64,000 bases of DNA, from contig NZ_JAETWA010000047.1 in NCBI RefSeq assembly GCF_016774335.1, forward strand, positions 248,001 through 312,000, written 5' to 3'. Shown here in pieces: positions 1,510-60,969 of this stretch; position 1 is the first letter of the stretch, and each line of letters starts with the position of its first letter. The position numbers and the translations under genes are program-made. A model generated the notes under the pieces. It was not told the DNA's origin. It searched no databases and saw only the letters and a program-made list of their open reading frames with translations. This DNA comes from Luteimonas saliphila. GTDB lineage: Bacteria; Pseudomonadota; Gammaproteobacteria; Xanthomonadales; Xanthomonadaceae.

Positions 1510-2403
1510 ATGGCCCGACTCACCGCGAAGGATTTCCATCCCGAACTGCTGGAGCTGTACGACTTCTACGTGCACGGCCGCATCTCGCGCCGGGATTTCC
1601 TCGACCGCGCGACGAAGTTCGCCGTCGGCGGCCTGACCGCGGCCACCATCCTGGCCTCGCTCAGCCCCGACTACGCGCTGGCGCAGCAGGTGCAGTTCAC
1701 CGATCCGGACATCCTTGCCGAGTACATCCGCTATCCCTCGCCCAACGGCCACGGCGAGGTGCGCGGCTACCGCGTGCGCCCGGCCAAGGCCGAGGGCAGG
1801 CTGCCGGGCGTGGTGGTGGTGCACGAGAACCGCGGCCTCAACCCCTACATCGAGGACGTGGCGCGGCGGCTGGCCAAGGCCGGGTTCCTGGCGCTGGCGC
1901 CGGACGGGCTGAGTTCGGTCGGCGGCTACCCGGGCAACGATGCGCGCGGGCGCGAGCTGCAGCAGCAGGTCGATCCGGAAAAGCTGATGAACGACTTCTT
2001 CGCCGCGATCGAGTTCCTGATGCAGGATGAACGCGGCACCGGCAAGGTCGGCATCACCGGGTTCTGCTACGGCGGCGGGGTCTCGCATGCGGCGGCGGTG
2101 GCCTATCCCGAGCTGGCGGCGGCGGTGCCGTTCTACGGCCGCCAGGCGAAGCCCGAGGACGTGCCGAAGATCAAGGCGCCGCTGTTGATCCATTTCGCCG
2201 AGACCGACGACAACGTCAATGCCACCTGGCCCGCGTACGAGGCGGCGCTCGAGGCCGCGGGCACGCGTTACGAGGCCCACTTCTATCCCGGCACCTACCA
2301 CGGCTTCCACAACGATTCGACGCCGCGCTACGACGAAGCGGCGGCGGCGCTGGCCTGGGAACGGACGCTCGACTGGTTCCGGCGGCACCTCGTCGCCGCG
2401 TGA
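1510..2403 (+). CDS. dienelactone hydrolase family protein with Tat-like N-terminus
   Basis: Alpha/beta hydrolase of the DLH family, 297 aa. An N-terminal segment with 'SRRDFLDRATKF' (about residues 26-37) followed by a hydrophobic stretch to about residue 50 resembles a twin-arginine signal, as in YghX-type DLH proteins, so a periplasmic location is likely. The catalytic set is visible: E106 in 'VVHENRG', nucleophile C186 in 'GFCYGGG', D233 or D234 in 'AETDD', and a histidine in 'YHGFHND' (H264 or H267). The natural substrate is not predictable; the family hydrolyses carboxylic esters and lactones. It is divergent from prlC (203 bp between starts) and convergent with the serine hydrolase gene ending at 2437, so it is probably its own unit. 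Confidence 0.88.
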   Translation: MARLTAKDFHPELLELYDFYVHGRISRRDFLDRATKFAVGGLTAATILASLSPDYALAQQVQFTDPDILAEYIRYPSPNGHGEVRGYRVRPAKAEGRLPGVVVVHENRGLNPYIEDVARRLAKAGFLALAPDGLSSVGGYPGNDARGRELQQQVDPEKLMNDFFAAIEFLMQDERGTGKVGITGFCYGGGVSHAAAVAYPELAAAVPFYGRQAKPEDVPKIKAPLLIHFAETDDNVNATWPAYEAALEAAGTRYEAHFYPGTYHGFHNDSTPRYDEAAAALAWERTLDWFRRHLVAA

Positions 2404-2436: not shown

Positions 2437-4020
2437 CTACTCCTCCGCCTGCGGCACGAACGACAGGTCGTGGTAGTCGTAGCTGAAGTCGGCCAGCGGC
2501 GAGACCGCCTTCATCGTGATCCGCGACACCTTGCCTTCCGCATCCAGCGCGAAGCTGACGTAGGCCGGTTCGATGGCCGTGTCGTCCCACCGCGTGCGGA
2601 AGGTGTCGTACTGCCAGTGCTCCAGCGTGCCGGCCATGTTCGGCGTCTGCAGGAAGTCGATGCGCAGCCTGCCGGCGTCGGCGGCGACCGTGATCGGCCC
2701 GTACCAGGCATCGACGTAGCGGCCGGCATAGCCGGCCAGGGGCAGCGATGGCTTCGAGGCCTTGCGCGCCTGCGTACCGGTGGACGCCAGCGCAGCGAGC
2801 CCGCCCTCGAGGCGCGCCTGGTTCCATTGCCCGAAGGCCGCCACCCAGTCGCGCGGCTCGAAGCCCAGGTAGTGGTCCAGCAGTTCCTGGCCGAGGCCGC
2901 GCAGCACGTCCACGTCTTCGGCATTGATCTGCAGCGCGATGCCGAGGTCGTGCTCGGGCACCAGCACCACGAAGGCGAGCACGCCGAACACCGCGCCGCC
3001 GTGCTGCACCACCTTCACCCCGCGATAGTCCTGCACGTTCCAGCCCAGCGCGTAGCCGGAGAACTGCGGCGTGATGGCGCCGATAGGTTCGGGATACGGG
3101 CGGATCGGCACATGGATCTGCGGCGTCCACATCTCGCGCGCAGTGGCCTCGTTCCACAGGCGCCCGTTGCCGTCGGGGCGCGCGCCGAGCGCCAGTTGCA
3201 CCTGCAGCCAGCGCGCGAAGTCGTTCGCGCTCCACGACAGGCCGCCGGCCGCTGCACCGACCTGTCCCAGGCCTTCGCGTTCGCGCAGCAACTGCTGTTC
3301 GCCCAGGCCACGCAGGCGCGGGTCGAGTCGCGCGTGCGGCTGCGCGCGGTTGCGCGTCGCGAAGCGATCGGCCTCGTCGCTGACGGCGGTCGCCATGCCC
3401 AGCGGCCGGAAGATGTGATCGCGCACGAACGCCTCCCAGCTCTCCCCGCTCACGGCGGCGACCACTTCGCCGGCGACGATGTAGAGGATGTTGTCGTAGG
3501 CATAGCCGCTGCGGAAACTCGTCGCCGGTTCGATGTGGCGCAGCGCGCGGACGATGTCGGCGCGGCTGCGCGAACTGCGCGGGATGAACAGCAGGTCGCC
3601 CGCGCCCAGGCCCAGGCCGCTGCGATGCACCAGCAGGTCGCGCACGGTCATCTCGCGCGTCACCCACGGATCGTGCATCCGGAACTCCGGCAGGTGGTCG
3701 ATGACCCGGTCGTCCCAGTGCAGCTTGCCGTCGTCGACCAGGATCGCCAGCGCCGCGGCGGTCACCGCCTTGCCGGTGGAGCCGGTGGGGAAGAGCGTGT
3801 CGGCGTCGACCGGATCGGACCCGCCCAGCGCGCGCACGCCGTAGCCCTTCGCATGCACGATCTCGCCGTCCTTCACGATCGCGATCGCCATGCCGGGCAC
3901 ATCGCGCGTGCGCATGGCCGCCTCCACCCGCGCATCGAAACCGGCGGGCGGCGCGGCGACTGCGGGCGCGACGATGCACGCCAGCACCAGCAGGAGAGTG
4001 TGGAACAGGGTCACGCGCAT
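2437..4020 (-). CDS. secreted S12-family serine hydrolase (class C beta-lactamase-like / D-aminopeptidase-like)
   Basis: Predicted exported hydrolase of the beta-lactamase/DD-peptidase fold, 527 aa. Residues 1-22 form a Sec signal peptide. The acyl-serine motif is S81-T-G-K84, the second motif Y175-D-N177, and 'QHGGAVFG' supplies the third (H-x-G). A C-terminal lipocalin-like extension is common in this family. Members include D-aminopeptidases, DD-carboxypeptidases and esterases, so substrate is inferred from context: it closes the unit receptor - DUF1611 protein - YkvI-like carrier - hydrolase. Start choice: an in-frame ATG at 4047 overlaps the upstream stop (ATGA), but the ATG at 4020 has a GAGGAG ribosome site 8 nt upstream and directly begins the signal peptide, so 4020 is preferred. 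Confidence 0.85.
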   Translation of the reverse strand: MRVTLFHTLLLVLACIVAPAVAAPPAGFDARVEAAMRTRDVPGMAIAIVKDGEIVHAKGYGVRALGGSDPVDADTLFPTGSTGKAVTAAALAILVDDGKLHWDDRVIDHLPEFRMHDPWVTREMTVRDLLVHRSGLGLGAGDLLFIPRSSRSRADIVRALRHIEPATSFRSGYAYDNILYIVAGEVVAAVSGESWEAFVRDHIFRPLGMATAVSDEADRFATRNRAQPHARLDPRLRGLGEQQLLREREGLGQVGAAAGGLSWSANDFARWLQVQLALGARPDGNGRLWNEATAREMWTPQIHVPIRPYPEPIGAITPQFSGYALGWNVQDYRGVKVVQHGGAVFGVLAFVVLVPEHDLGIALQINAEDVDVLRGLGQELLDHYLGFEPRDWVAAFGQWNQARLEGGLAALASTGTQARKASKPSLPLAGYAGRYVDAWYGPITVAADAGRLRIDFLQTPNMAGTLEHWQYDTFRTRWDDTAIEPAYVSFALDAEGKVSRITMKAVSPLADFSYDYHDLSFVPQAEE

Positions 4021-4043
4021 GCTTGCGTCTCCTCGGAAGTGGT

Positions 4044-5159
4044 TCATGCCTGCGCGCCCGGCCGCGTGCGCATCCGCCACAGGTGCCAGCTGCCGAACGT
4101 CAGCAGCGGCAGCACGTACACGAACAGGAACAGCCAGGCCAGCGCGCGGTAGCCGTGCGCGATCAGCGCGACCAGTCCGTAGCGCTCGGCGATGAAGATC
4201 GAGCCAACCAGCAGCACCACCGCGACACAGAGCCGCGCGCCACGCGGGAAGTCGCCCCGCTCGCGTTTCCGCCACGCACCGGCGATGCGCTCGTTGACCG
4301 CGTGCACCGCGCCCACGCCGCTTTCGAGCAGGGCCAGGAAGATCATCGCCTGGAAGCCGACGTGCAGCAGCGGTTGCTGCATGCGCCGCAGCATGTAGTC
4401 CGACGGCAGCGCCTCGCCGGCGATCTGCGGCATCCACGCCAGCATGCAGGCGAAGAACGCGATCGCCGGCAGGATCGCCAGCGGGCCGGCCAGCAGGCCG
4501 GCGGCGACCGCATCGCGACGCCGGGTGAAATGCCGCAGCATCGGCAGGATCGCGACCGCGCCGACGATGTTGTAGCAGGCATAGGTCAGCCCGCCCTGCA
4601 CCCAGCCATCGAGAGAATGCGGCGTGGAAAGGCCCTGCAGGATGCGGTCGCCGAACGTGGTGAAGGCGAACGCGACGAACAGCACGTACATCGCGTACAG
4701 GAACACCGAGGCCCAGCCGAACAGACGCTCGACCGCACGGTTGCCGAAGGCCACCACCGCGCCGATCGCCGTCATCAACGCCAGCGTGCCCACCAGCGGC
4801 GGCCAGCCGGTCAGCGCGGCGACCACCGCGCCGGCCGCCGCGCCGAACACCGCCAGGATCAGCACCATGAACACCACGTAGGCGAGTTCGAACACCACCC
4901 AGCCGGGCCCCACCAGCCGGCCGAAGAAACCGCGGTAGTCGTAGCTGCCGGTGGCGAAGGCGAACACGAACGTCAGCGCGCACACCACGCTCCACACCAC
5001 CATCGCCAGCGACAGGCCCAGCAATCCGCCCTGCGCGCCACTGGGCAGGAAGTATTCGGCGAGTTCACGTCCCGTCGCGTAGCCGCCACCGATCACGAAG
5101 CCCTTGAACGCGAGGCCGGGCAGGAGGAAGCGCTGGAACCGTGTCGGCACCGGGCTCAT
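4044..5159 (-). CDS. YkvI-family inner-membrane transporter-like protein
   Basis: Polytopic membrane protein of 371 aa with about ten hydrophobic helices. It opens with 'FKGFVIGGGYATGRELAEYF', the glycine-rich first helix typical of the YkvI group, which is related to sodium-coupled amino-acid transporters of the LeuT-fold superfamily. Substrate is not known for the family. Its position between the DgcN-type gene (18 bp upstream) and a secreted S12 hydrolase (4-bp overlap with an alternative start, 23 bp to the preferred one) argues for import of an amino acid or small peptide released by these enzymes. A second, unrelated carrier (DUF819) sits in the partner operon. Confidence 0.75.
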   Translation of the reverse strand: MSPVPTRFQRFLLPGLAFKGFVIGGGYATGRELAEYFLPSGAQGGLLGLSLAMVVWSVVCALTFVFAFATGSYDYRGFFGRLVGPGWVVFELAYVVFMVLILAVFGAAAGAVVAALTGWPPLVGTLALMTAIGAVVAFGNRAVERLFGWASVFLYAMYVLFVAFAFTTFGDRILQGLSTPHSLDGWVQGGLTYACYNIVGAVAILPMLRHFTRRRDAVAAGLLAGPLAILPAIAFFACMLAWMPQIAGEALPSDYMLRRMQQPLLHVGFQAMIFLALLESGVGAVHAVNERIAGAWRKRERGDFPRGARLCVAVVLLVGSIFIAERYGLVALIAHGYRALAWLFLFVYVLPLLTFGSWHLWRMRTRPGAQA

Positions 5160-5177
5160 CGCCGCGTGCCCCTGCGC

Positions 5178-6218
5178 TCAGGCCAGGCAGGCATCGACCA
5201 GCCGGTCGAACGCTTCGCCGCCGCGCATCGGATCGGCGACCGGCAGGCCCAGGCGCGTAGCGGTGGCTTCGATCGCCTCGCGCGCGGCCGCCGCGTCCAG
5301 CGCGCCGGTGTTGAGGCTCACTCCGGCGCAACGGATCGCCGGATTGGTGCGCGCCCCCAGCCGCAGCGCGAGATCGATCGTGTCTTCCACCGACGGCAGC
5401 GCGAAGTGGGAATGGCCGAGCATGCGCTCGCGGCCATGTTCGTGGCAAACCACGATGACGTCGGGCTGGCTGCCGTGCAGCAGCGCCAGCGACACCCCGG
5501 CGTAGGCCGGATGCGACAGCGAGCCCTGTCCTTCGATCACGTCCCAGTGCCCGGCATCGGCATCTGGCGACAGCATTTCTGCAGCGCCCGCGGCGAAATC
5601 CACCACCACCGCGTCCATCGGCACGCCACCGCCCGCGATCAGGATCCCGGTCTGCCCGCTGGCGCGGAAGTCGACATCGACCCGGCGCGACGCGAACGCG
5701 CGCGCAAGCGACAGCGCGGTGTACTTCTTGCCCAGCGCGCAGTCGGTGCCGATGGTGAGCAGGCGGCGGCCGGAACGCTTGCGACCGCTCGCGACCGGCA
5801 GTCCCGTCGGCGGCTCGCGCACGTCGATCAGCTGCCGGCCGTGCACCACCGCGGCATTGCGCAGCGGCTCGATCTCCGCCAGCCTCGCATGCATGCCACC
5901 GATCAGGTCCAAGCCGGCATGCAGCGCGTCGAGCAGCAGCGGGATCCAGTTCGCCGGAATCCGCCCGCCGGGGTTGGCGATCCCGATCACCATCGACCGC
6001 GCCCCCAGCATCCGCGCCTGCGGCGGCGACAGGAAGGGCAGACCGGTGGTGACGGTCGCACCCTTGCACGCGTACTCGCCGACGCAGCGCTCGCCGGCCC
6101 AGTCGCGCAGCCCGAACGCGGTCTTGGCGTAGCCCGGTTCGGTGACGTCGCCGAGGAACAGCAGATACGGTTGCGGCAGCGGCTCGGCCTCGCGCAACGC
6201 GGGAACGGCATTGGGCAT
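5178..6218 (-). CDS. dgcN: DUF1611 family protein, DgcN-type D-glutamate N-acetyltransferase
   Basis: Cytoplasmic protein of 346 aa. The N-terminal Rossmann-like part contains 'NPGGRIPANW' (about 82-91), and a P-loop-like segment 'GTDCALGKKYT' lies at about 157-167, both hallmarks of DUF1611. The characterised member DgcN uses acetyl-CoA to convert D-Glu to N-acetyl-D-Glu, which DgcA then racemises. Here a DgcA-like epimerase is encoded in the sister operon (11781-12794), which is the main reason to prefer this role over the looser ATP-grasp or L-Ala-D-Glu epimerase-associated annotations of the family. Start ATG at 6216-6218; the gene lies 62 bp downstream of the TonB receptor stop and 18 bp upstream of the YkvI-like gene, consistent with one operon. 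Confidence 0.8.
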   Translation of the reverse strand: MPNAVPALREAEPLPQPYLLFLGDVTEPGYAKTAFGLRDWAGERCVGEYACKGATVTTGLPFLSPPQARMLGARSMVIGIANPGGRIPANWIPLLLDALHAGLDLIGGMHARLAEIEPLRNAAVVHGRQLIDVREPPTGLPVASGRKRSGRRLLTIGTDCALGKKYTALSLARAFASRRVDVDFRASGQTGILIAGGGVPMDAVVVDFAAGAAEMLSPDADAGHWDVIEGQGSLSHPAYAGVSLALLHGSQPDVIVVCHEHGRERMLGHSHFALPSVEDTIDLALRLGARTNPAIRCAGVSLNTGALDAAAAREAIEATATRLGLPVADPMRGGEAFDRLVDACLA

Positions 6219-6280
6219 GCGGACTGGTCCGTATCCTTGCGGGGGAGGCATGCCGTCCCGGTGGCGGGCCGGCACGCGGA

Positions 6281-8632
<2,352 letters not shown>

Positions 8633-8696
8633 GGCATGTTCCCCGGGTCGGCGATGGCACCCCGCGTTGGCGGAGGCCGGAGTGGTCGGCTAAGTC

Positions 8697-8735
8697 CTGA
8701 TCAGGGATCATGATCCTAATCAGAGAATTGTCAAC
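8697..8735 (-). promoter_or_regulatory. promoter and palindromic operator A of the TonB-receptor operon
   Basis: On the minus strand a consensus -35 TTGACA (8734-8729) is followed after 17 bp by a weak -10 ATGATC (8711-8706), 74 bp before the receptor ATG. The spacer and -10 lie inside a nearly symmetrical element, 8697-8723: outer arms CTGAT and ATCAG around a perfect 12-bp palindrome GGATCATGATCC (8705-8716). The 18-base block AATCAGAGAATTGTCAAC (8718-8735) recurs exactly at 14985-15002. A repressor bound here would cover the promoter. Confidence 0.75.
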
Positions 8736-8747
8736 CCGCACGGAGAA

Positions 8748-10511
8748 TCAATTTCGTGCTGCGCCAACCGCTTCCGCGCCCGTGCCCGTGCCCGTGCCCG
8801 TGCCCGCTCCCGTCCAGCCTGGCCCACGCACGACCCGGCCGGGCGTGGCACCGGTGTGTTCGCCATCGCGCAGCACCTGCACGCCGTTGACGAAGACCTC
8901 GCCGACACCGGTCGCGTACTGCTGCGGTCTGTCGTAGCTGGCATGGTCGATGATGGCCGCCGGGTCGAACACCACGATGTCGGCGAAGCAGCCGGGTCGC
9001 AGGCAACCGCGGTCTTGCAGCTTCCAGTTCGCGGCCGGCAGGCCGGTCAGGCGGTGGATGCCCTCCTCCAGCGACATCAGCTTGCGGTCGCGCACGTAGT
9101 GCCCGAGGAAACGGGCGAAGTTGCCGTAGGCGCGCGGATGCGTGCTCGATTTCAGGAACACGCCCTCCGGCGCCGACGACTCCGCATCCGATCCGAGGCT
9201 CACCCAGGGCTGCTTCAGGCCCAGCGCGACGTTCTCCTCGCTCATCAGGAAGTACGCCGCGCCCACGCGCGAATCGTCCTCGACGATCAGGTCGAGGACG
9301 GTCTCTTCCGCGGTCGTTGCGCGCTCGCGCGCCACGTCGGCCAGGGTGCGGCCGGTCAGCGGCTTGAGCGTGGGATTGCGGAAGTCGATCAGGATCAGGC
9401 GCTCGTCGGAGCCGGCGAGCAGGCGCAGGTTCTCCCACTCGACGTGGGGATCGCGCATTTCCGCCAGCACCCGCGCACGGATCGCCGGATCCTCCAGCCG
9501 CGCCACCATCGCCTCGTGGCCGCCGGCCTGCACCCAGGGCGGCAGGGCGGCGGCGAGCCCGGTCGCGCCGGCGGTGTAGGCGTACATGTTGGCGCTCACC
9601 TGCAGGCCTTGCGCGCGCGCTCCCTCGATCTTCGCGATCGCCTGCGCCATCTTCGGCCAGTTCTTCTCGCCCGCCGCCTTGAGGTGATAGGCCTCTGCGC
9701 GCTGGCCGGTGGCGCGCGCGATGGCGATGGTCTCGTCGAGCGCCTCGAGGAAGCGGTCGGCCTCGCTGCGCATGTGCGCGACATAGCCGCCACCGCTCTC
9801 GGCTGCGGCCTGCGCCAGTGCGACCAGTTCGTCGGTGTCGGCGAACGCCGCCGGCGGGTAGATCAGCGAGCTGCCGACGCCGAGCGCGCCCTCGCGCATC
9901 GCCTGGCGCACCAGGTCCTGCATGCGGGCGAGCTGCGCGGCATCGGGCTGGACGTCGTCCTCCCCCAGTTCGTGGATGCGGACCGTGGTCGCGCCGACGA
10001 AGGATGCGACGTTCGGGGTCACGCCGCGTCGTTCCAGGAACCCGAGGTAGTCGCCCAGCGAGGTCCATTCGAGGTCGTAGCGGATGTCGCCCTGCTGCTT
10101 CAACGCTTCGGCCCGCATGCGGGCGTTGACAGGCCCCATCGACCAGCCTTCGCCGAAGATCTTGAGGGTCACGCCCTGCTTCGTGTCGCTGATACCACGC
10201 CCGTCCTCGATCAGCGATTCGGTGGCCCAGCTCAGCACGTTGATGAAACCCGGCGACACGGCCCGGTCGCGCGCATCCAGCACCGTGTCTGCCTGCGCCC
10301 CGGTGCCGGCGGGAAGCAGCGCGGCGATGCGGTCGTCGCGCACGGCCACGTCGACCCGTTGCGGCGCAGCCCCGCTGCCGTCGTAGACCACGCCGTTGCG
10401 GATCAGCAGGTCGTAGCGCTGCGTGGAAACACCGGTGGCCGGGGTGCCGGCGCATGCGGCGAGCACGGGCAGCAGCGCGGCTGCCAACAGGCGAACGATC
10501 GGTCGATGCAT
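8748..10511 (-). CDS. N-acyl-D-amino-acid deacylase family amidohydrolase, lipoprotein
   Basis: Amidohydrolase of 587 aa related to D-aminoacylases, which hydrolyse N-acyl-D-amino acids. The N-terminus (MHRPIVRLLAAALLPVLAAC) is a lipoprotein signal with lipobox LAAC, so it is lipid-anchored in the cell envelope. Family motifs seen: 'SPGFIN' after the first beta-sandwich strand, 'AHMRSE', 'YHLKAAG', and late 'SLGSDAESS' (metal/catalytic Asp). The usual HxH after PGFID is replaced by 'NVLSWATESL', and the zinc-bridging Cys region reads 'FGEGWSMGP', as in a recognisable but little-studied subfamily. It is the last gene of the unit starting at 14878. The C-terminus is a Gly-Thr repeat coded by a hexanucleotide microsatellite. 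Deacylation of N-acetyl-Glu or N-acyl-D-amino acids is inference. Confidence 0.8.
   Translation of the reverse strand: MHRPIVRLLAAALLPVLAACAGTPATGVSTQRYDLLIRNGVVYDGSGAAPQRVDVAVRDDRIAALLPAGTGAQADTVLDARDRAVSPGFINVLSWATESLIEDGRGISDTKQGVTLKIFGEGWSMGPVNARMRAEALKQQGDIRYDLEWTSLGDYLGFLERRGVTPNVASFVGATTVRIHELGEDDVQPDAAQLARMQDLVRQAMREGALGVGSSLIYPPAAFADTDELVALAQAAAESGGGYVAHMRSEADRFLEALDETIAIARATGQRAEAYHLKAAGEKNWPKMAQAIAKIEGARAQGLQVSANMYAYTAGATGLAAALPPWVQAGGHEAMVARLEDPAIRARVLAEMRDPHVEWENLRLLAGSDERLILIDFRNPTLKPLTGRTLADVARERATTAEETVLDLIVEDDSRVGAAYFLMSEENVALGLKQPWVSLGSDAESSAPEGVFLKSSTHPRAYGNFARFLGHYVRDRKLMSLEEGIHRLTGLPAANWKLQDRGCLRPGCFADIVVFDPAAIIDHASYDRPQQYATGVGEVFVNGVQVLRDGEHTGATPGRVVRGPGWTGAGTGTGTGTGAEAVGAARN
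8779..8802. repeat. hexanucleotide tandem repeat (CCCGTG)4
   Basis: Four exact copies of CCCGTG on the plus strand, followed by an imperfect fifth (CCCGCT). On the minus strand it encodes the (Gly-Thr)n tail of the amidohydrolase, about 12 codons before its stop. Copy-number change would lengthen or shorten the tail by two residues without breaking the frame. Confidence 0.9.
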
Positions 10512-10635
10512 CAGGGTGCTCCTGTCGCGGGTGGAGGGTCGAGGGTCGTGGCGATCCCCTTGTACCGCCGAACGTCTGGCGGATGCGCCGGGCGTACCGG
10601 GCGGCCGGAATCGCGAAGGCGCGGCCACCACCGGC

Positions 10636-11784
10636 TCACGGCGCCACCGCCTCGTACAGGCCGATCCCGACGAAGTTGCCGAGCACGTAGCCCAGCACGC
10701 CGGTGGCCACCGCGGCAACGGCCAGCCGCCGCCAGCCGAACAGGACCGCGAACGCGATCGCGATCGGTGGCCCGCCGATGCATGCCGTGGATGCGATGAC
10801 GATTTCGGCATGATTGAGCCGGCAGAGCCGCGCACCGGCCAGGAGGAAGGCGATGTGCACGGCGAAGATCACCAGCACGTAGGCGAACAAGGCCGGCGCT
10901 GCGCCCCACATCGCACCGAGGTCGGCACCCGCGCCGAGCATCGCGAAGAACAGGTACATGAACAGCGTGGCCGCCAGTTCCGGTCCGGCGATCGCCTTGA
11001 GCCAGCGTCGCCCCACCGTCGCGATCGCGACCATCGACAGGGTGATGTAGAGGATCGCGTACGTGGGCTGGCCGAGACGCGACGCCAGCTCGATGCCTGC
11101 GGCGCACGCCAGCGTGGCCAGGCCCAGCGCCAGCGCCAGGTCGATGACGGTCGGCACGCGCCGTGCGTCGTCCGTATCGCCGACGGCACATGCCAGCAGT
11201 TCGGCCCGCCAGGCGAACCGGCTGCGGAACACCGACCAGGTCGCGGCTGCGCCGACCAGCAGCAGGTAGCCGAGCCCGACCACGTTGTCGATCGCCACGC
11301 CGGTGGCCAGGGCCGTGGGATCGCGAAAGCCGACCGCCTCGGCGACCGCCGCGAAGTTCAGCGAACCGCCCACGTAGGTGGCGCTGAACACGGCCGCGTA
11401 CTCCGCCTCGAACGGCCCCAGATCGAGCAGTTTCGTGCCGAGCCACGCACCGGCGGCGACGCCGACGGCTCCGAACGCGAACGCCACCAGCGTGCGTCCA
11501 CCGTCGACCACGATGCTCACCAGGTCCGCACGCAGCAGGAACAGGGCGATCGCCAGCGGTACCAGGTACGTCCAGATGAGGTCGTAGGTCGGTGCGGAGG
11601 CCGGGATGACGTCGAACTGGGCCAGCGCGATCGCGATCGCGATCACCAGCATCACGCCCGAGACGCGCTTGCCGATCCCGGTCTTTTCCAGGCTGGCGCC
11701 GATTGCCGTCAGCGCGAAGAACACCGCCAGCAGCGCGAATGCGTTGTCGGCGGGGATCAGCGTCGGGGTGATCGGTGGCGTCAT
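10636..11784 (-). CDS. DUF819 family inner-membrane protein
   Basis: Integral membrane protein of 382 aa with roughly ten to twelve hydrophobic helices. Characteristic DUF819 segments are 'YVGGSLNFAAVAEA' (centre) and 'STACIGGPPIAIAFA' near the C-terminus, which suggest a two-repeat carrier architecture. Function is unknown for the family; it often sits beside amino-acid epimerases and peptidases. Here its ATG (11784) overlaps the epimerase stop by four bases (ATGA), so the two proteins are probably translated together, and a role in moving the epimerase substrate (an acidic dipeptide or N-acetyl-glutamate) is a reasonable inference. It is followed by 124 bp before the amidohydrolase. Confidence 0.8.
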   Translation of the reverse strand: MTPPITPTLIPADNAFALLAVFFALTAIGASLEKTGIGKRVSGVMLVIAIAIALAQFDVIPASAPTYDLIWTYLVPLAIALFLLRADLVSIVVDGGRTLVAFAFGAVGVAAGAWLGTKLLDLGPFEAEYAAVFSATYVGGSLNFAAVAEAVGFRDPTALATGVAIDNVVGLGYLLLVGAAATWSVFRSRFAWRAELLACAVGDTDDARRVPTVIDLALALGLATLACAAGIELASRLGQPTYAILYITLSMVAIATVGRRWLKAIAGPELAATLFMYLFFAMLGAGADLGAMWGAAPALFAYVLVIFAVHIAFLLAGARLCRLNHAEIVIASTACIGGPPIAIAFAVLFGWRRLAVAAVATGVLGYVLGNFVGIGLYEAVAP

Positions 11785-12794
11785 CCCGAAGCCGACGCGC
11801 CCCAGACCACCGCTGGGCAGTCGATGTGCCCATCGCGATAGACGACACCGGGAGTGCGATCCTGGCGGAGGAAGGTGGGCCCGTCGAGGTCGACGACATC
11901 GCAAAGCTGTCCGAGCACGAATGCGGGCGCAGCCGCGAGGCTGGTCCCGCACATGTTGCCGACCATCACCTGCTTGCCGAGTTCGCGCGCACGCCGGGCC
12001 ATCATCAGCCCTTCGGTCAGGCCGCCGCACTTGTCGAGCTTGATGTTGATCACGTCGAACCGGTGGTGGCGCGCTTCGAGTTCGGCCAGGTCGAGGATGC
12101 TTTCGTCCGCGGCGAACGGCAGCGCGCGCGCGATGCCGTCGAGTTCGTGCTCGCGCCCACGCACGCAGGGTTGCTCCAGCAGCGCCACGCGCGCTTCCAG
12201 CAACGCCGGCAACAGCGATGGCAGCGTGGCGCCATCGTAACCCTGGTTGGCGTCCACGCCGATCCACGACCCGGGGCAGCGTGCACGGACTGCGCGCAGC
12301 CGCGCGACATCGAGGTCCGGTTCACCGGTCAGCTTCAGCTTCAGCGCGCGCGCCTGCATCGTGCCGTGCACGTAGGCGGTCGCGCGCTCGGCCATGACCG
12401 CGGGTCCGTCCGCGCCGACGGTGAACGTGGTCAGCAACGGACGCGCGCCATCGAGCCCTGCAAGCATCCACACCGGGACCCCGGCGCGTTGCGATTCGAG
12501 TTCCCACAACGCGCAATCCAGCGCATTGCGGGCGCCGCCGGCCGGCAGCAGCGTGCGCAGCGTCTCGCGATCGAGGCCGGCCTCGATCCGTGGCCGCAGC
12601 GCCTCCAGCGTGGCCAGCATCGCCTCGGGATGGTCGTTGTTGTAGTAGACGCCGGCCGCCTCGCCGCGACCCACGTGCGCGCCGTCGCGCAGCGTCGCCA
12701 CGGTGGCGGGCATCGCTTCGAACACGTGCCCGGCGATGCGGAACGGTGCGGCCATCGGCAGCGGTTCGTTGTGCAGTTCGAGTGCGAGCGGCAC
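11781..12794 (-). CDS. dgcA: enolase-superfamily epimerase, DgcA-type N-acetyl-D-glutamate racemase or dipeptide epimerase
   Basis: Cytoplasmic enzyme of 337 aa in the muconate-lactonising subgroup of the enolase superfamily. Active-site residues are readable: the KxK pair K152/K154 ('LKLKLTG'), metal ligands D181 ('GVDANQG'), E207 ('LLEQP') and D230 ('ADES'), and the second catalytic lysine K252 in 'NIKLDKCGG'. Closest described activities are L-Ala-D/L-Glu epimerase and N-acetyl-D-glutamate racemase (DgcA). The presence of a DgcN-type gene in the co-regulated operon favours the DgcA assignment. Start: no early ATG fits; a GTG at 12794 preceded by a GGGAGC ribosome site gives the expected beta-strand start. 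It overlaps the DUF819 gene by 4 bp. Confidence 0.8.
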   Translation of the reverse strand: MPLALELHNEPLPMAAPFRIAGHVFEAMPATVATLRDGAHVGRGEAAGVYYNNDHPEAMLATLEALRPRIEAGLDRETLRTLLPAGGARNALDCALWELESQRAGVPVWMLAGLDGARPLLTTFTVGADGPAVMAERATAYVHGTMQARALKLKLTGEPDLDVARLRAVRARCPGSWIGVDANQGYDGATLPSLLPALLEARVALLEQPCVRGREHELDGIARALPFAADESILDLAELEARHHRFDVINIKLDKCGGLTEGLMMARRARELGKQVMVGNMCGTSLAAAPAFVLGQLCDVVDLDGPTFLRQDRTPGVVYRDGHIDCPAVVWGASASG

Positions 12795-12862
12795 GGTGCG
12801 GGCGCTCCCGGGAAACGTGGGGTCGATACGCCGGCGGCGCGTGGCCGCCGGCAGGATGATCG

Positions 12863-14878
12863 TCAGTAGTTGGCGCCGAAGCCGATCAGGTGCTGGGCGA
12901 TGCCGATCCACAACACGAACCCGCAGGCCAGCGCCAGCAGGACGGCCCACAGCTTCGCCAGCAGCCGGCGCCGGCCGCGCAGTACGTGCCAGGCATTCCA
13001 CAGCGCCACCGCGGCACCGAGTGGCAGCACGAGGGTGGCGAACAGGCGCAGGGCGATGATGATCGCGTCGGTGTCGGGGCTGGTGTACTCCAGCTTGCTG
13101 AGCATGCCGACCACCAGTCCCAGCGCCCCGCCCATCGCCAGCAGCACCAGCAGGGCCGCGATCCGCACCAGCCGGTGCGCGCGCGCGTCCAGCCCGGCCA
13201 GCCTGTAGGGCGCACGGTAGTAGCGGCGCACCAGCGCCGACACCGGCCACGCCAGCACCGTCAGCAGCAGCACCGCCAGGCTGGCCACCAGCAGCGGCAT
13301 GCCCAGTGCCTGCCAGCCCGACAGGCGCTGGAACACCATGATCGGCGCGTACGGCTCCATGCTGAAACGCGTGACCTTGCCGTCGACCACGTCGGCCGCC
13401 AGCCGATCGGTGCTCGAAGTGTCCTGCCACACGTACGGCGCCACTTCGCGCCACTTCTTCGGCGCGCCGCCCGGGCCGAGGGCCAGGGTCACGCTGATCG
13501 TGCCGTCCTCGTTGGCCACCACCTTCACCGGGCCCAGCAGGTTGGCCAGCGACAGGAAGTTGCTGTCCGGTCGGCGGCTGCTGGTGTAGGTGCCGGCGAT
13601 CTGCTGCGCATGCAACTGCGCGTCGGCTTCGGACACGCCCGCCTGCGTCTGCGCATCGCCAGGCAGGTAGCGGTCGGCGAAGCCGCGCGAGAGTGCGTAG
13701 CGGATGTGTCCGGTGGCGCCGTCGCGGCCGGAACTGTTCATCGACACGAACAGGCCGATGCCGTCGTCGGGAAACAGTTGCAGGTCGCTGTGGAACCACT
13801 GCGTGTCGCCGCCGTGCGAGATCGCGCGGTGGCCGTTCACCGAGGTCTCGTAGAAGCCGAGCATCATCCGGTTGAGCGGGCCCACCGAGGCCTGACCGGT
13901 GGCATGCATCGTCCGTGCGGTGTCCGCGTCGAGGATGCGCGCGTCGCCGTAGGCGCCGCCCTGCAGGTGCGCGATCATGAAGCGGGCCATGTCGCTGCCG
14001 GTTGCGGCGAGGCTGCCGGCGGGGGCGAGGCTGATGAACTCGTAGTCCTGCGGCGTGCCGTCGGACGCCCGCGAATACCCCTTCGACATCTGCGCCAGCA
14101 GCGCCGGCGGCAGCGGCTGGCGGAAGCTGGAGTGCGCCATGCCCAGAGGCTGGAAGATGTGGCGGTCGAGATAGTCGTCGAAGCTTTCGCCCGACACGCG
14201 CTCGACGATGTAGCCGGCCAGCGCGGTCGCGTAGTTCGAGTACGCCGGCGTGGTGCCGGGCGCATGGATGCGTTCGGGGACCCAGTGCTTGAGCGCCTCG
14301 CCGAGCGGGGTGATCTCGTCCTCGCTCGCGGTGATCAGCGCACGGATCTGCTCCTCGAACCCGGTGGTGTGGGTCATGATCTGGCGCAGCGTCACCGGCG
14401 TGTCGTCGTGCGCGGGGAGCTCGAAATCCAGGTACTGGTTGACGTCGGCGTCGAGGTCGAGCTTGCCCTGCTCCACCAGTTGCATCACCGCCGTCCAGGT
14501 GAACAGCTTGGAGACCGAGCCCGGGCGGAACAGGGTGGCCTCCGGGTCGACCGGCGCGCGGCTCGCCAGGTCCGAATAGCCGTAGCCCTTCTGCACCAGG
14601 ACCTGGCCGTCCTTGACCACCACCACCACGGCGCCGGCGATGTCGCCCGCGGCCAGCGCGTAGGGCATGAACCCGTCCAGCCAGGCCTCGACGTCGCCAC
14701 GTTCCAGCCCCGGCGTGCCGGCAGCCGGGGCTGGCGCGGCCGCGGCCGGAGCATCGGCCGGACTCGGCAGCGCCGGGGGCGGCACCGCACCGGGTGTCAC
14801 CGCCGCTTCCTGCGCGGTTGCGGTCGCCATGCCGGCGGCCAGCAGCCAGGCGCTCAGGATCATGGGAATCGTGCGCAT
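12863..14878 (-). CDS. secreted S12-family serine hydrolase with C-terminal membrane helices
   Basis: Exported hydrolase of 671 aa. Residues 1-23 are a signal peptide, then an Ala/Pro-rich linker to about residue 57, then a beta-lactamase/DD-peptidase domain with S121-V-S-K124, 'AYSNYAT' (Y-x-N) and 'ISHGGDTQ' (H-x-G). The last 170 residues hold four or so membrane-spanning helices, so the catalytic domain is displayed on the periplasmic side of the inner membrane. It opens the unit with the DgcA-like epimerase, DUF819 carrier and amidohydrolase. A longer reading frame extends upstream to 14986, but that start lies inside the operator; ATG 14878 has GGAGA 8 nt upstream and begins the signal peptide. 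Cleavage of D-residue-containing peptides is inference from context. Confidence 0.85.
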   Translation of the reverse strand: MRTIPMILSAWLLAAGMATATAQEAAVTPGAVPPPALPSPADAPAAAAPAPAAGTPGLERGDVEAWLDGFMPYALAAGDIAGAVVVVVKDGQVLVQKGYGYSDLASRAPVDPEATLFRPGSVSKLFTWTAVMQLVEQGKLDLDADVNQYLDFELPAHDDTPVTLRQIMTHTTGFEEQIRALITASEDEITPLGEALKHWVPERIHAPGTTPAYSNYATALAGYIVERVSGESFDDYLDRHIFQPLGMAHSSFRQPLPPALLAQMSKGYSRASDGTPQDYEFISLAPAGSLAATGSDMARFMIAHLQGGAYGDARILDADTARTMHATGQASVGPLNRMMLGFYETSVNGHRAISHGGDTQWFHSDLQLFPDDGIGLFVSMNSSGRDGATGHIRYALSRGFADRYLPGDAQTQAGVSEADAQLHAQQIAGTYTSSRRPDSNFLSLANLLGPVKVVANEDGTISVTLALGPGGAPKKWREVAPYVWQDTSSTDRLAADVVDGKVTRFSMEPYAPIMVFQRLSGWQALGMPLLVASLAVLLLTVLAWPVSALVRRYYRAPYRLAGLDARAHRLVRIAALLVLLAMGGALGLVVGMLSKLEYTSPDTDAIIIALRLFATLVLPLGAAVALWNAWHVLRGRRRLLAKLWAVLLALACGFVLWIGIAQHLIGFGANY

Positions 14879-14962
14879 CGAACGGTCTCCGGTCGGGGGA
14901 CGGGGTCTTGCGTGGTCGTGGAACCGCGCCGCGGCGCCGAGGGCGGCGGGAGCCGGTTCATC

Positions 14963-15002
14963 CTGATTCGGCGATAATGATCCCAATCAGAGAATTGTCA
15001 AC
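14963..15002 (-). promoter_or_regulatory. promoter and operator B of the hydrolase-epimerase operon
   Basis: Minus strand: -35 TTGACA (15001-14996), 17-bp spacer, -10 ATTATC (14978-14973), about 95 bp before the ATG at 14878. Arms CTGAT (14963-14967) and ATCAG (14986-14990) flank 'ATGATCC'. Compared with operator A, 'ATGATCC' plus one variable base plus AATCAGAGAATTGTCAAC matches with a single difference over 26 positions. Such identity between two non-homologous genes 6 kb apart is best explained by a common regulator. Confidence 0.75.
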
Positions 15003-15078
15003 CAGTGCCGAAAGTCTCCCGGACTCCTGTCTTCACGGCCGGCGACCACACCCACCCTTCCCACCGATCGCCTGCGAA

Positions 15079-15100
15079 GGCGATGATGATCCTCTTCAGG
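15079..15100. promoter_or_regulatory. candidate third operator (C) upstream of the HTH-cupin gene
   Basis: The stretch GGCGATGATGATCCTCTTCA matches operator B (GGCGATAATGATCCCAATCA) at 16 of 20 positions. It lies 42 bp before the regulator ATG at 15142, where binding would give autoregulation. It lacks the TTGACA extension of A and B, so it is weaker evidence. Confidence 0.4.
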
Positions 15101-15141
15101 ACATGCCAGCCTGTCGCGGACAACCAGGAGATCCGGCAAGG

Positions 15142-15879
15142 ATGACTGCGCAACATCCCACCATCGGCGGACTGCTGCGCTCGCTGCGCGCGCGCAAGGG
15201 CTGGACGCTCAAGCAGATGAGCGAGCATTCCGGCATCCCGCTCTCGACCCTGTCCAAGGTCGAGCACGACCGCCTGACCCTCACCTACGACAAGCTGCTG
15301 CAGCTCAGCCAGCGGCTCAACCTGCGCATGTCCGAACTGTTCGCCGAGCAGGACGAGGCACCGGAGCCGCCGGTGACCGCGCGCCGCAGCATCGGCCGCA
15401 TCGACGACGCGATCCGCGTCACCACCCCCAACTACGACTATTACTACCTGTGCCCGGAACTGCGCCGCAAGCGCATGATCCCGGTCCTCACCCGGGTGCG
15501 CGCCAAGAGCATCGAGGAGTTCGGCGAGCTGGTGCGGCACTCCGGCGAGGAATACATCCACGTACTCGAGGGGCGCATGGAGGTGCACACCGAGTTCTAC
15601 GACCCGATGGTGCTCGAGACCGGCGAGTCGGTGTACATCGACTCCAACATGGGCCACGCCTACATCGCCGCTGAAGGCTGCGACGAGGTGCTGCTGCTCG
15701 GCGTGTGCTCGAGCGCGGACGAGCAGCTGATGGAATCGCTGCTCACCCTGCACGGGGAGGAGGGCGCCGCGCAGCAGGCGCGCGCGCCACGCGCGCTGCC
15801 GCAGCCGAGCCCGACCAGGACCCTCCCTGCCAGGCGCGCGACAAGGAAGAAGCCGGCGAGGAAATCCAGGGGCGAATAG
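15142..15879 (+). CDS. HTH (XRE-type) transcriptional regulator with cupin sensor domain
   Basis: DNA-binding regulator of 245 aa. An XRE-type helix-turn-helix occupies about residues 8-62 ('LRARKGWTLKQMSEHSGIPL', 'LSKVEHDR'), followed by a double-stranded beta-helix cupin domain (about 110-190, with 'HSGEEYIHVLEGRMEVH' and 'GHAY'), the usual small-ligand sensor of this class. The C-terminus is a low-complexity Pro/Arg/Lys tail. It is divergent from the hydrolase-epimerase operon with the operator between them, and is the obvious candidate to bind operators A, B and C. ATG 15142 is preferred over an upstream in-frame ATG at 15102 because AGGAG lies 11 nt upstream. The effector (perhaps D-Glu or N-acetyl-Glu) is unknown. 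Confidence 0.85.
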   Translation: MTAQHPTIGGLLRSLRARKGWTLKQMSEHSGIPLSTLSKVEHDRLTLTYDKLLQLSQRLNLRMSELFAEQDEAPEPPVTARRSIGRIDDAIRVTTPNYDYYYLCPELRRKRMIPVLTRVRAKSIEEFGELVRHSGEEYIHVLEGRMEVHTEFYDPMVLETGESVYIDSNMGHAYIAAEGCDEVLLLGVCSSADEQLMESLLTLHGEEGAAQQARAPRALPQPSPTRTLPARRATRKKPARKSRGE

Positions 15880-33597: not shown

Positions 33598-33622
33598 GCC
33601 AGCAGGGTTGCGCGCTGGATAG

Positions 33623-33650
33623 CAGGAACCCGCCAGCCGGCGGGTTCCTG
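33623..33650 (+). terminator. hairpin downstream of the M23-BTRD1 gene
   Basis: CAGGAACCCGCC (33623-33634), loop AGCC, and perfect complement GGCGGGTTCCTG (33639-33650). It starts 25 bp after the stop. No U-run follows, so it may be a 3'-stabilising structure rather than a classical intrinsic terminator. Confidence 0.55.
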
Positions 33651-33725
33651 TTCAACGGGTTCCTGTTGGACATGCGGCGGATTGGACATGCGACGGAGCG
33701 CCGCGGTGTTCGACCGTCGCTGCAA

Positions 33726-33755
33726 GCACCGCCACTTCAAGCACCGCCACTTCAA
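33726..33755. repeat. 15-bp tandem direct repeat
   Basis: GCACCGCCACTTCAA occurs twice back to back (33726-33740 and 33741-33755) in noncoding DNA; a short slippage duplication. Confidence 0.8.
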
Positions 33756-33938
33756 GCCATGCGCCTGATCGGCGCCCACTCTTCGCTCCGGCTGCGCGAT
33801 CACATAGTCCCGGTCACGGCGCCCGCGCACCCAAGCCATCCCCCGGGCAGCGAGCGCACCGGGGCAGCGCACCAGGGCAGCGAGAATCGCACGACCGCGA
33901 CCGGACGACGAGGTACCGGCCGCGATCGCGCGACACGA

Positions 33939-33962
33939 ACCGGGCGGCAGGTGCCGCCCGGT
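33939..33962 (-). terminator. hairpin downstream of the lipoprotein gene
   Basis: ACCGGGCGGCA, two-base loop GG, TGCCGCCCGGT: a perfect 11-bp stem 16 bp beyond the stop of the minus-strand lipoprotein gene. No T-run follows. Confidence 0.5.
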
Positions 33963-33978
33963 CCGTTGCAGGGACGGA

Positions 33979-34359
33979 TCAGTAGCCGTCGTTGTTGTTC
34001 TCGCCGTCCGCGGCCGAATTGGCCTCCTCGGCGGCGTCCTGCGCCTGCTCGGCGGCGTCGGCGGCCTTCTCGGCGGCATCGGCCAGGTCTTCGCGGCGGG
34101 TCATCTCGTCGCCGGTATCCACCTGGGCGGCGATGTGCGCGCTCGCGTCGGCTGCCGCATCGGCGGCGTCGGCAGCGGCCTGCGCGGACTCGGCCGCGGC
34201 CAGATCGCCGGTGTTCGCCGCATTCTGCGCGGCCTGCTGCGCCTCGGCGGCCGAGTCGGCGGCCTCCTGTGCGGAGTTGGCGGCCTGGTCGGTGTTGCTG
34301 CAGGCACCCAGGCCGGCGGCCAGGGCAAGCGCAAGAAGGGTCTTGGTGGTCGTCGTCAT
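33979..34359 (-). CDS. small alanine-rich lipoprotein
   Basis: 126-aa predicted lipoprotein with signal '[14 protein letters not shown]' (lipobox LGAC, Cys20). The mature part is almost pure Ala/Glu/Asp/Gln in heptad-like spacing ('[20 protein letters not shown]'), so it should be a long alpha-helix or coiled coil, reminiscent of Lpp-type or alanine-zipper proteins, and ends in an acidic, Asn-rich tail ('DGENNNDGY'). Function unknown. It lies between the M23-BTRD1 gene and rpoD, transcribed with neither. Confidence 0.8.

Positions 34360-54902: not shown

Positions 54903-60969
<6,067 letters not shown>

What the first reader, a model, noticed from the sequence alone, without database searches (positions are those of the whole stretch)
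2437..15879. Co-regulated D-glutamate / D-peptide uptake and catabolism locus built around DgcN- and DgcA-type enzymes
Two minus-strand operons contain a DUF1611 DgcN-type N-acetyltransferase, an enolase-superfamily DgcA-type racemase, an N-acyl-D-amino-acid-deacylase relative, two exported S12 serine hydrolases, two unrelated inner-membrane carriers, a TonB receptor and an HTH-cupin regulator. The described DgcN-DgcA route turns D-Glu into N-acetyl-D-Glu and then N-acetyl-L-Glu. Here the route seems extended outward: receptor for uptake, periplasmic hydrolases to release D-Glu from muropeptides, carriers, then the two-step conversion and deacylation to L-Glu. I know of no description of the pathway fused to an outer-membrane receptor and S12 hydrolases, although I cannot search for it.
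Basis: partly seen in the sequence, partly recalled or inferred. Interest (0 to 1): 0.85.

Follow-up and report, generated by a model that had tools for sequence, protein, structure and literature searches.

The report
D-peptide scavenging regulon with retargeted racemase
A bacterium related to Luteimonas carries a tightly co-regulated set of genes that looks built to take up and break down peptides containing mirror-image (D) amino acids; its two central enzymes are cousins of a known D-glutamate pathway, but their pockets appear reshaped for a different, probably uncharged, D-amino acid.

Summary
The gene set is real and behaves as one regulon. Window 2437-15879 holds eight minus-strand genes in two operons (S12b-DgcA-DUF819-amidohydrolase; TonB-DgcN-APC carrier-S12a) and a divergent HTH-cupin regulator. 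One promoter/operator pattern, taken from the first operon, has a single further site in the 4.65 Mb genome: before the second operon. In 149 family genomes its 18 sites all lie in homologous clusters.

The D-glutamate reading is not supported. Both enzymes miss the DgcN/DgcA equivalog cut-offs and form a separate paralogous clade; five of 149 genomes hold both kinds. Basic residues at three positions of the epimerase's specificity loops, kept in 47-50 of 53 canonical-like DgcA, are Gly, Phe and Tyr in 85-86 of 86 window-type enzymes; catalytic residues are intact. The 'deacylase' looks exported and lacks the D-aminoacylase HxH and Cys ligands.

Best reading: a D-peptide scavenging regulon whose DgcN/DgcA-like pair inverts a non-acidic D-amino acid by N-acylation and cofactor-independent racemisation. 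Activity and substrate are untested. New variant of a known kind.

The parts
2437..4020 (-). S12a: exported S12 (beta-lactamase-fold) serine hydrolase with C-terminal DUF3471
   Evidence: PF00144 3.7e-63, PF11954 3.6e-28; hydrophobic N-terminus, STGK and HGG motifs
4044..5159 (-). car1: inner-membrane carrier without a Pfam family; APC/LeuT fold, likely amino acid transporter
   Evidence: no Pfam/NCBIfam hit; AlphaFold2 pLDDT 88; Foldseek hits AdiC, MhsT, LeuT, LAT1, also Nramp
5178..6218 (-). DgcN-like DUF1611 protein (window-type clade), presumed D-amino-acid N-acyltransferase
   Evidence: PF07755 7e-69, PF17396 7e-19; NF041892 423 bits, below cut-off 480; separate clade
6281..8632 (-). TonB-dependent outer-membrane receptor
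   Evidence: PF00593 2.3e-38, PF07715 4.4e-21
8707..8734 (-). promoter/operator copy 2, upstream of the TonB-DgcN-car1-S12a operon
   Evidence: 1 mismatch to the pattern; one of two sites in the genome; sequence seen
8748..10511 (-). amidohydrolase related to D-aminoacylase with a lipobox-like start (LAAC); HxH and Cys ligands absent
   Evidence: 1m7j 5.1e-65; ligand alignment; N-terminus
10636..11784 (-). DUF819 membrane carrier; most homologous loci with a second carrier have a POT peptide transporter instead
   Evidence: PF05684 1.9e-47; POT 51, DUF819 9, neither 28 of 88 loci, never both
11781..12794 (-). DgcA-like enolase-superfamily epimerase (window-type clade), basic specificity-loop residues lost
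   Evidence: PF13378, PF02746; NF042940 330 bits, cut-off 400; residue counts
12863..14878 (-). S12b: exported S12 hydrolase with four C-terminal membrane-helix-like segments
   Evidence: PF00144 1.5e-66; SVSK, YSN, HGG and hydrophobic segments
14961..15001 (-). promoter/operator copy 1: TTGACA-type promoter (by eye) overlapping an inverted repeat TCCTGATT-N16-AATCAGAGA
   Evidence: the search patterns were drawn from this site and its homologues
15142..15879 (+). HTH-cupin regulator, divergent from S12b
   Evidence: PF12844, PF07883; present in 78 of 88 window-type loci and 0 of 14 canonical loci

Best explanation
This is a D-peptide scavenging regulon. A TonB-dependent receptor brings D-amino-acid-containing peptides through the outer membrane (inferred). 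Two exported S12 hydrolases and an exported amidohydrolase cut them (inferred from family and signals). An APC/LeuT-fold carrier brings the released D-amino acid into the cytoplasm, and a second carrier (DUF819 here, a POT peptide transporter in many relatives) brings in the same or a small peptide (inferred). In the cytoplasm the DgcN-like protein N-acylates the D-amino acid and the DgcA-like enolase-superfamily enzyme racemises the N-acyl product without PLP or FAD; a deacylase encoded elsewhere frees the L-amino acid (inferred). The pair is a paralogous branch of DgcN-DgcA that has probably changed its substrate from D-Glu to a non-acidic, perhaps hydrophobic or aromatic, D-amino acid. An HTH-cupin regulator probably represses both operons by binding at their shared promoter sequence until a pathway ligand binds its cupin domain (shared sequence shown by comparison, binding and repression inferred).
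For: Regulon: the operator pattern, drawn from the first site, has one further site in 4.65 Mb, before the second operon; reversed control 0. 18 sites in 11 of 149 family genomes, all within 10.3 kb of a window-type DgcN, one of them 76-149 bases from the S12b start in 10 of 10 fetched clusters. Gene set: 88 window-type against 14 canonical loci: S12 87 v 3, regulator 78 v 0, this kind of TonB receptor 73 v 0, car1 72 v 0, GltS 0 v 8, gamma-glutamyltranspeptidase 0 v 5. Peptide theme: POT transporter in 51 of 88 and M19 dipeptidase in 28 of 88 loci (families). Separate clade: DgcN tree of 118, window-type one side of a branch, support 96; DgcA window-type clade of 85, support 99. Paralogy: 5 of 149 family genomes hold canonical and window-type DgcN. 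Pairing: all 84 window-type DgcN rows with a DgcA found within 9 kb have the altered loop; 39 of 40 canonical rows have Arg21 and Arg/Lys24. Pocket: window-type DgcA Gly21 86/86, Phe24 85/86, Tyr50 86/86; canonical-like Arg21 50/53, Arg/Lys24 47/53, Arg50 47/53; six catalytic and metal residues 86/86 in window-type. DgcN also differs at window positions 267 (canonical Arg, here Leu) and 41 (Arg, here Ala). An enzyme of this superfamily from T. maritima is reported to take dipeptides with hydrophobic C-terminal residues (PMC13338154, passage).
Against: No activity, binding or growth is shown for any member. That the 20s/50s loop arginines bind the acidic side chain is recalled; the papers are not held, and no pocket was measured. 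Gly/Phe/Tyr loops could bind an acidic substrate in another way. The operator pattern was found in only 11 of the 25 family genomes with window-type DgcN and in 35 of 81 loci at up to 4 substitutions; the exact inverted repeat of site 1 is not matched at site 2. 28 of 88 loci show neither POT nor DUF819 and 17 none of the three accessory hydrolases sought. Some canonical loci have receptors of other kinds that look like TonB receptors (clusters C12, C54, by eye), so coupling to a receptor is not unique to this clade. No L-specific deacylase is in the regulon; ten M20-family matches, of unknown substrate, lie elsewhere in the genome. 'Mid' clade members mix the features.
Confidence: 0.5

Rival explanations
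1. One reading: the pair still converts D-Glu (from muropeptides or other D-Glu peptides) to N-acetyl-L-Glu; the loop changes only alter affinity or partner protein.
For: Best family models are DgcN and DgcA (423 and 330 bits, next best for the epimerase 194). Catalytic residues intact. Exported S12 hydrolases and a TonB receptor fit cell-wall peptide uptake.
Against: Equivalog cut-offs missed; separate clade and different neighbours; GltS and gamma-glutamyltranspeptidase, which accompany canonical DgcN in 8 and 5 of 14 loci, are in 0 of 88; basic loop residues lost in 85-86 of 86; genomes with both kinds exist.
Confidence: 0.2
2. The epimerase acts on dipeptides (L-Xaa-D-Yaa) brought in by the POT/DUF819 carrier, and the DUF1611 protein does an accessory reaction; N-acylated amino acids are not intermediates.
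For: RefSeq names the gene dipeptide epimerase in two plasmid records; Asp297 and Asp299, recalled as amine ligands of dipeptide epimerases, are kept in 86 of 86; POT in 51 and M19 dipeptidase in 28 of 88 loci.
Against: The Asp pair is also kept in canonical-like DgcA (53 and 51 of 53), so it does not discriminate; the altered epimerase accompanies the acyltransferase relative in all 84 window-type rows where a DgcA was found; DgcA model beats the E. coli epimerase model 330 to 194 bits.
Confidence: 0.2
3. The regulon is mainly a detoxification or defence system against nonribosomal peptides: S12b works like the D-stereospecific peptidases BogQ/TriF and the rest recycles the debris.
For: S12b's solved-structure relatives include alkaline D-peptidase 4y7p (4e-24) and S12a's include ClbP (9.2e-18); S12b has C-terminal membrane segments. 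PMC9541196 (passages) states that BogQ is an S12 peptidase and that BogQ and TriF cut after cationic and aromatic D-residues.
Against: Beta-lactamases, esterases and DD-carboxypeptidases score in the same range; carriers and catabolic enzymes point to nutrition. Biosynthetic or self-resistance genes nearby were not sought.
Confidence: 0.08

Closest known systems
DgcN-DgcA D-glutamate pathway (EC 2.3.1.312, EC 5.1.1.25; NCBIfam NF041892, NF042940)
   Same: Same two protein families, in one locus, same catalytic residues in the epimerase
   Different: Below both equivalog cut-offs, separate clades, basic specificity-loop residues replaced, S12 hydrolases, APC carrier, this TonB receptor and HTH-cupin regulator added; of 14 canonical loci 11 have LysR, 8 GltS and 5 gamma-glutamyltranspeptidase
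[quoted passage not shown] coli 1jpd, relative 4gfi)
   Same: Fold family, KxK and metal ligands, Asp-x-Asp motif
   Different: Arg21, Arg24 and Arg50 of 1jpd are Gly, Phe, Tyr; 194 bits against a cut-off of 343
N-succinylamino acid racemase route for D-to-L conversion (recalled)
   Same: Same logic: acylate a D-amino acid, racemise with an enolase-superfamily enzyme, deacylate
   Different: Different acyltransferase family (DUF1611); uptake and hydrolysis parts in the same regulon
D-aminoacylase / N-acyl-D-glutamate deacylase (1m7j, 3gip; subtype V amidohydrolase)
   Same: Sequence relationship; His220, His250, Asp366 equivalents kept
   Different: HxH and Cys96 replaced (FINVLSW, GEG); lipoprotein-like start
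D-stereospecific S12 peptidases (alkaline D-peptidase 4y7p, BogQ/TriF, ClbP)
   Same: S12 domain; membrane segments after it in S12b
   Different: Closest relation not established; many S12 families score alike

Membership tests
DgcN (D-glutamate N-acetyltransferase) | DUF1611 N- and C-terminal domains | tested here: met
   PF17396 and PF07755 over their cut-offs
DgcN (D-glutamate N-acetyltransferase) | NCBIfam equivalog cut-off of 480 bits | tested here: not met
   423.2 bits
DgcN (D-glutamate N-acetyltransferase) | branches with canonical DgcN | tested here: not met
   118-row quick tree, window-type apart from canonical, SH-aLRT 96 and 92
DgcN (D-glutamate N-acetyltransferase) | acetyl-CoA:D-Glu N-acetyltransferase activity | not testable with these tools
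   needs purified protein
DgcA (N-acetyl-D-glutamate racemase) | enolase-superfamily catalytic and metal residues | tested here: met
   Lys149, Lys151, Asp176, Glu202, Asp225, Lys247 equivalents in 86 of 86
DgcA (N-acetyl-D-glutamate racemase) | NCBIfam equivalog cut-off of 400 bits | tested here: not met
   330.3 bits
DgcA (N-acetyl-D-glutamate racemase) | basic residues in 20s and 50s loops as in most canonical-like DgcA | tested here: not met
   Gly21, Phe24, Tyr50
DgcA (N-acetyl-D-glutamate racemase) | N-acetyl-D-Glu racemase activity | not testable with these tools
   needs purified protein
D-aminoacylase (amidohydrolase subtype V) | Cys/His/His zinc site, HxH and catalytic Asp | tested here: not met
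   His, His, Asp kept; HxH and Cys absent in the window protein and the 26 others of its pattern among 47 aligned rows. PMC12017989 (passages): Ala mutants of His68 or His70 in PpOngB have no activity and of the zinc ligands extremely low or none
L-Ala-D/L-Glu epimerase, E. coli type (NF011708) | NCBIfam equivalog cut-off of 343 bits | tested here: not met
   193.8 bits
S12 serine peptidase family | beta-lactamase-fold domain with SxxK and HxG motifs | tested here: met
   PF00144 for S12a and S12b; motifs
TonB-dependent receptor | plug and beta-barrel domains | tested here: met
   PF07715 and PF00593
APC/LeuT-fold transporter (car1) | fold of the superfamily | tested here: met
   model pLDDT 88; Foldseek AdiC 1.4e-6, MhsT, LeuT; query TM-scores 0.49-0.71 in the 50 listed rows, so fold level only; substrate not shown

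The most novel reading that the evidence does not exclude
A widespread, in places plasmid-borne, self-contained D-peptide regulon in which a paralogous DgcN-DgcA pair inverts a neutral, hydrophobic or aromatic D-amino acid by N-acylation and PLP/FAD-free racemisation. This would be a second branch of the DgcN-DgcA route, built for scavenging nonribosomal or other D-peptides rather than D-glutamate, with an exported amidohydrolase of the D-aminoacylase line whose metal site has become Glu/His/His without HxH.
Probability: 0.4. Interest if true: 0.75.

Novelty: new variant of a known kind. Interest (0 to 1): 0.58.

Why it matters
D-amino acids are abundant in cell walls, nonribosomal peptides and refractory organic matter. 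If true, two annotated-as-known protein families contain a large paralogous branch with another substrate, so names such as 'dipeptide epimerase', 'DUF1611' or DgcN/DgcA by similarity would mislead; and a single regulon would show the route from outer membrane to N-acyl-L-amino acid. The shared promoter/operator makes induction by candidate D-peptides directly testable with a reporter.

Tried and rejected
Considered and rejected. (1) D-Glu as the substrate: see best explanation; kept as the first rival. (2) The amidohydrolase as the final deacylase: lipoprotein-like start and no HxH/Cys. (3) A regulon wider than the locus, which might have named the substrate: the operator pattern gave no site outside the clusters in 149 genomes at up to 3 mismatches. 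(4) A hint of hydrophobic substrate from a Glu/Leu/Phe/Val dehydrogenase beside the Croceicoccus cluster: no homologue in the other loci of at least 15 kb, so dropped. (5) DUF819 fold: model too poor to search (pLDDT 52.6). (6) A microcystin link suggested only by the name Sphingosinicella microcystinivorans (L136): no mlr genes were sought. (7) Literature: one held paper has D-glutamate, DgcN and DgcA together; DUF1611 gave 2 papers, by listing unrelated; D-glutamate N-acetyltransferase, N-acetyl-D-glutamate or DUF1611 gave 6; dipeptide epimerase with TonB-dependent and beta-lactamase gave 0; three of N-acetyl-D-amino acid, racemase, D-amino acid catabolism, TonB-dependent gave 1, on chitin oxidation, seen as a listing only; 20s loop with 50s loop or enolase superfamily gave 2, unrelated. 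Passages of PMC3605383 and PMC8142540 held nothing on the loop residues. The original DgcN-DgcA paper and the dipeptide-epimerase specificity papers are not held. That this gene set is undescribed rests on these searches only.

Limits of counts: rows include genomes reached by two routes; identical peptides were removed from the DgcA alignment, so part of the 22 window-type and 26 canonical rows 'without DgcA' are duplicates or 4-kb loci, not true absences. Class labels come from best BLAST hit against three pairs of seeds and were then compared with trees (quick method, several long branches). Of the canonical loci long enough for context, 7 are those of the family search and 7 were chosen by me from the 62 genomes over the cut-off. 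Gene neighbours are tblastn matches (E 1e-8, at least 100 residues) to one query each. Signal and membrane calls are hydrophobicity and motif counts, not a signal-peptide program.

Full report
What is there. The window (70% G+C) lies at G000:C45:248001-312000 of a 4.65 Mb genome; its nearest named relatives by DgcN are Luteimonas. Nine genes fill 2437-15879. On the minus strand, in order of transcription: S12b, DgcA-like epimerase, DUF819 carrier and amidohydrolase (14878 to 8748), then TonB receptor, DgcN-like DUF1611 protein, carrier car1 and S12a (8632 to 2437). An HTH-cupin regulator faces away from S12b at 15142-15879. Car1 has no Pfam or NCBIfam match; an AlphaFold2 model from 21 homologues (pLDDT 88) matches AdiC, MhsT, LeuT and LAT1, and also Nramp and other members of that fold, so it is an APC/LeuT-fold carrier, most likely for amino acids.

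Co-regulation. Regions upstream of the regulator in homologous loci share k-mers that lead to the consensus GGTTGACAATTCTCTGATTrGGATCATTATcgCC.aATCAGGA; a best match with at most 4 substitutions in its first 21 bases is found somewhere in 35 of 81 loci, usually before S12b, in some before the TonB gene. By eye it is a TTGACA-type promoter overlapping an inverted repeat. The repeat as written at site 1, TCCTGATT-N16-AATCAG[AG]GA, occurs only there in the window (0.04 expected; the pattern was drawn from that site), and is not matched at site 2 within 3 mismatches, so the exact operator is not settled. In the whole genome the 28-base pattern, up to 3 mismatches, has two sites: the one it was drawn from and one before the TonB gene; the reversed control has none. 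In 149 family genomes there are 18 sites in 11 genomes, with no match to the control; all 18 lie within 10.3 kb of a window-type DgcN. Fourteen of the 25 family genomes with window-type DgcN have no site at this stringency. Seven genomes have two sites and four have one. In the ten clusters measured one site lies 76-149 bases from the S12b start; six of the ten have a second, 92-97 bases from the TonB start in three and 428, 1229 and 1253 bases in three. A regulon centred on this locus follows; repression by the cupin regulator is inference.

Conservation. Among 149 family genomes 28 have a DgcN match, 35 matches in all: 7 over the equivalog cut-off (in 6 genomes), 28 under it. Of these 28, 25 are of the window type and 3 of an intermediate type. 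Five genomes hold canonical and window-type genes together. In 398 genomes of the phylum 73 have a match, 62 over the cut-off. The 80 best loci in named genomes come from Lysobacteraceae, Rhodanobacteraceae, Steroidobacteraceae, sphingomonads, a Caulobacterales MAG, unplaced Proteobacteria and two MAGs labelled Chthoniobacterales. In 88 non-redundant window-type loci of at least 15 kb: S12 87, DgcA 84, regulator 78, TonB 73, car1 72, POT 51, amidohydrolase 43, M19 dipeptidase 28, a second amidohydrolase 16, DUF819 9, LysR 1, GltS 0, gamma-glutamyltranspeptidase 0. In 14 canonical loci: LysR 11, DgcA 10, GltS 8, amidohydrolase 5, gamma-glutamyltranspeptidase 5, S12 3, the rest 0. In 8 intermediate loci: S12 4, TonB 2, regulator 0 (all). 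POT and DUF819 never occur together and 28 loci have neither. Against a clean split: some canonical loci carry other large proteins that look like TonB receptors (clusters C12 and C54, by eye). Large parts of the set stand on plasmids of Sphingobium yanoikuyae and Croceicoccus marinus, the two records opened, where RefSeq calls the products serine hydrolase, dipeptide epimerase, (in the second) peptide MFS transporter, TonB-dependent receptor, DUF1611 protein, hypothetical protein, serine hydrolase, and dipeptidase or amidohydrolase.

Not canonical DgcN-DgcA. Scores are 423 against 480 and 330 against 400 bits. In a quick tree of 118 DgcN sequences the 73 window-type rows are one side of a branch (support 96) and the 36 canonical rows another (92); of nine intermediates eight lie on the window-type side and one, long-branched, on the canonical side. 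In the DgcA tree of 143 rows, 85 window-type rows form a clade with support 99; the labels 'win' and 'can' as wholes need one extra change each because of long-branched outliers. The two go together: all 84 window-type DgcN rows with a DgcA found within 9 kb have the altered loop; 39 of 40 canonical rows have Arg21 and Arg/Lys24, the fortieth Arg21 and Ser24; of nine intermediates two have both, two Arg21 only, three neither and two no DgcA found.

The pocket. In E. coli epimerase numbering (N-terminus recalled), Arg21, Arg24 and Arg50 lie in the 20s and 50s loops of the capping domain, known in this superfamily as specificity loops (recalled). Window-type enzymes have Gly21 in 86 of 86, Phe24 in 85 of 86 and Tyr50 in 86 of 86. 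Canonical-like enzymes, outliers included, have Arg21 in 50 of 53, Arg or Lys24 in 47 of 53 and Arg50 in 47 of 53. Six catalytic and metal residues and the Asp-x-Asp pair are kept in 86 of 86. The three intermediates in that set keep Arg21 but have Tyr50. DgcN differs too: window positions Lys165 (canonical Met 97%), Leu267 (canonical Arg 100%, window-type Leu 90%), Ala41 (canonical Arg 92%). Two dipeptide epimerases, 3q45 and 3rit, also lack the E. coli loop pattern (their ligands are recalled only), and the T. maritima enzyme takes hydrophobic C-terminal residues (PMC13338154, passage). The simplest reading is that the acidic side chain is no longer bound and a neutral one is. The same genome has a second epimerase (contig 16, 165 bits to DgcA) with the loop TPFKTALRTV, which resembles the B. 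subtilis Ala-Glu enzyme as recalled, so the muropeptide task may be taken.

The amidohydrolase. It is a distant D-aminoacylase (1m7j) with a lipobox-like LAAC. In 47 aligned rows (1m7j included), 27 share its pattern: FIN[VM]LSW for the HxH motif and GEG for the Cys ligand, with both later His and the Asp kept; 13 rows have a second HxH-less pattern; HxH stays in 1m7j, in the homologues from canonical loci L037, L039 and L041, and in three others. PMC12017989 (passages) reports that alanine at the zinc ligands or at His68/His70 of the related OngB abolishes or nearly abolishes activity, that subtype V uses Cys/His/His, and that CE9 deacetylases use Glu/His/His plus an HxH motif. A Glu/His/His site is therefore possible here but unproven. 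A hydrophobic stretch near the start is seen in homologues of 37 of 43 loci and a lipobox-like motif in 19 of 43 (crude).

How it probably works. Shown: gene content, shared promoter sequence, conservation, clade, pocket changes, lost ligands. Inferred: uptake of D-peptides by the TonB receptor; cutting by S12 enzymes, a family with D-specific members such as alkaline D-peptidase (4y7p is among S12b's relatives in the PDB, below 9sn1, 2qmi and 4gdn) and BogQ (PMC9541196, passages); import by car1 and DUF819/POT; N-acylation; racemisation; deacylation by an unlinked enzyme (ten M20-family matches in the genome, none in the window, substrates unknown).

Rivals and verdict. D-Glu with altered loops, dipeptide epimerisation, and peptide-antibiotic detoxification remain open (see the Rival explanations section). 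I file it as a new variant of a known kind. EC numbers of DgcN and DgcA are from PMC11747546 (passage); PMC10845958 (passages) mentions the canonical pathway in Shewanella.

Noticed in passing
L037, L038, L040 (family genomes): Canonical DgcN (over the cut-off) stands next to GltS or a D-aminoacylase relative with no DgcA homologue (tblastn, E 1e-10) in the roughly 20 kb fetched; the D-aminoacylase relative in L037 keeps HxH.
   Followed up: no
L044, L053, L055, L209-L213, L215: An intermediate DgcN group; its DgcA, where found, has mixed loop motifs (for example RGVR with Tyr50) and other neighbours; possibly a third specificity.
   Followed up: partly
L091, L092: Window-type clusters in two MAGs labelled Chthoniobacterales (Verrucomicrobiota), nested among Lysobacteraceae on the DgcN tree: transfer or binning error.
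   Followed up: no
L033 (own genome, contig 16, about 33065-34072): A second dipeptide-epimerase-like gene with a B. subtilis-like 20s loop.
   Followed up: partly
L229 5326-6971: Beside the Croceicoccus plasmid cluster lie an Lrp/AsnC regulator and a Glu/Leu/Phe/Val dehydrogenase, a possible hint at the amino acid; the dehydrogenase was not found in the other loci of at least 15 kb.
   Followed up: yes
window 32143-33597: Protein with four matched stretches of polyglycine-hydrolase-like repeats (PF17660, 1.2e-67) and no other domain at 1e-10.
   Followed up: no
window 54903-59360 and 59440-60969: Glutamate synthase large-subunit gene and, after it, a gene with the domains of the small subunit (Fer4_20, Pyr_redox_2), in the same window but outside the regulon.
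   Followed up: no
window 1510-2403: Dienelactone-hydrolase-family gene with a twin-arginine-like start (by eye), convergent with S12a; among the 114 loci matched only in the close relative L068.
   Followed up: partly
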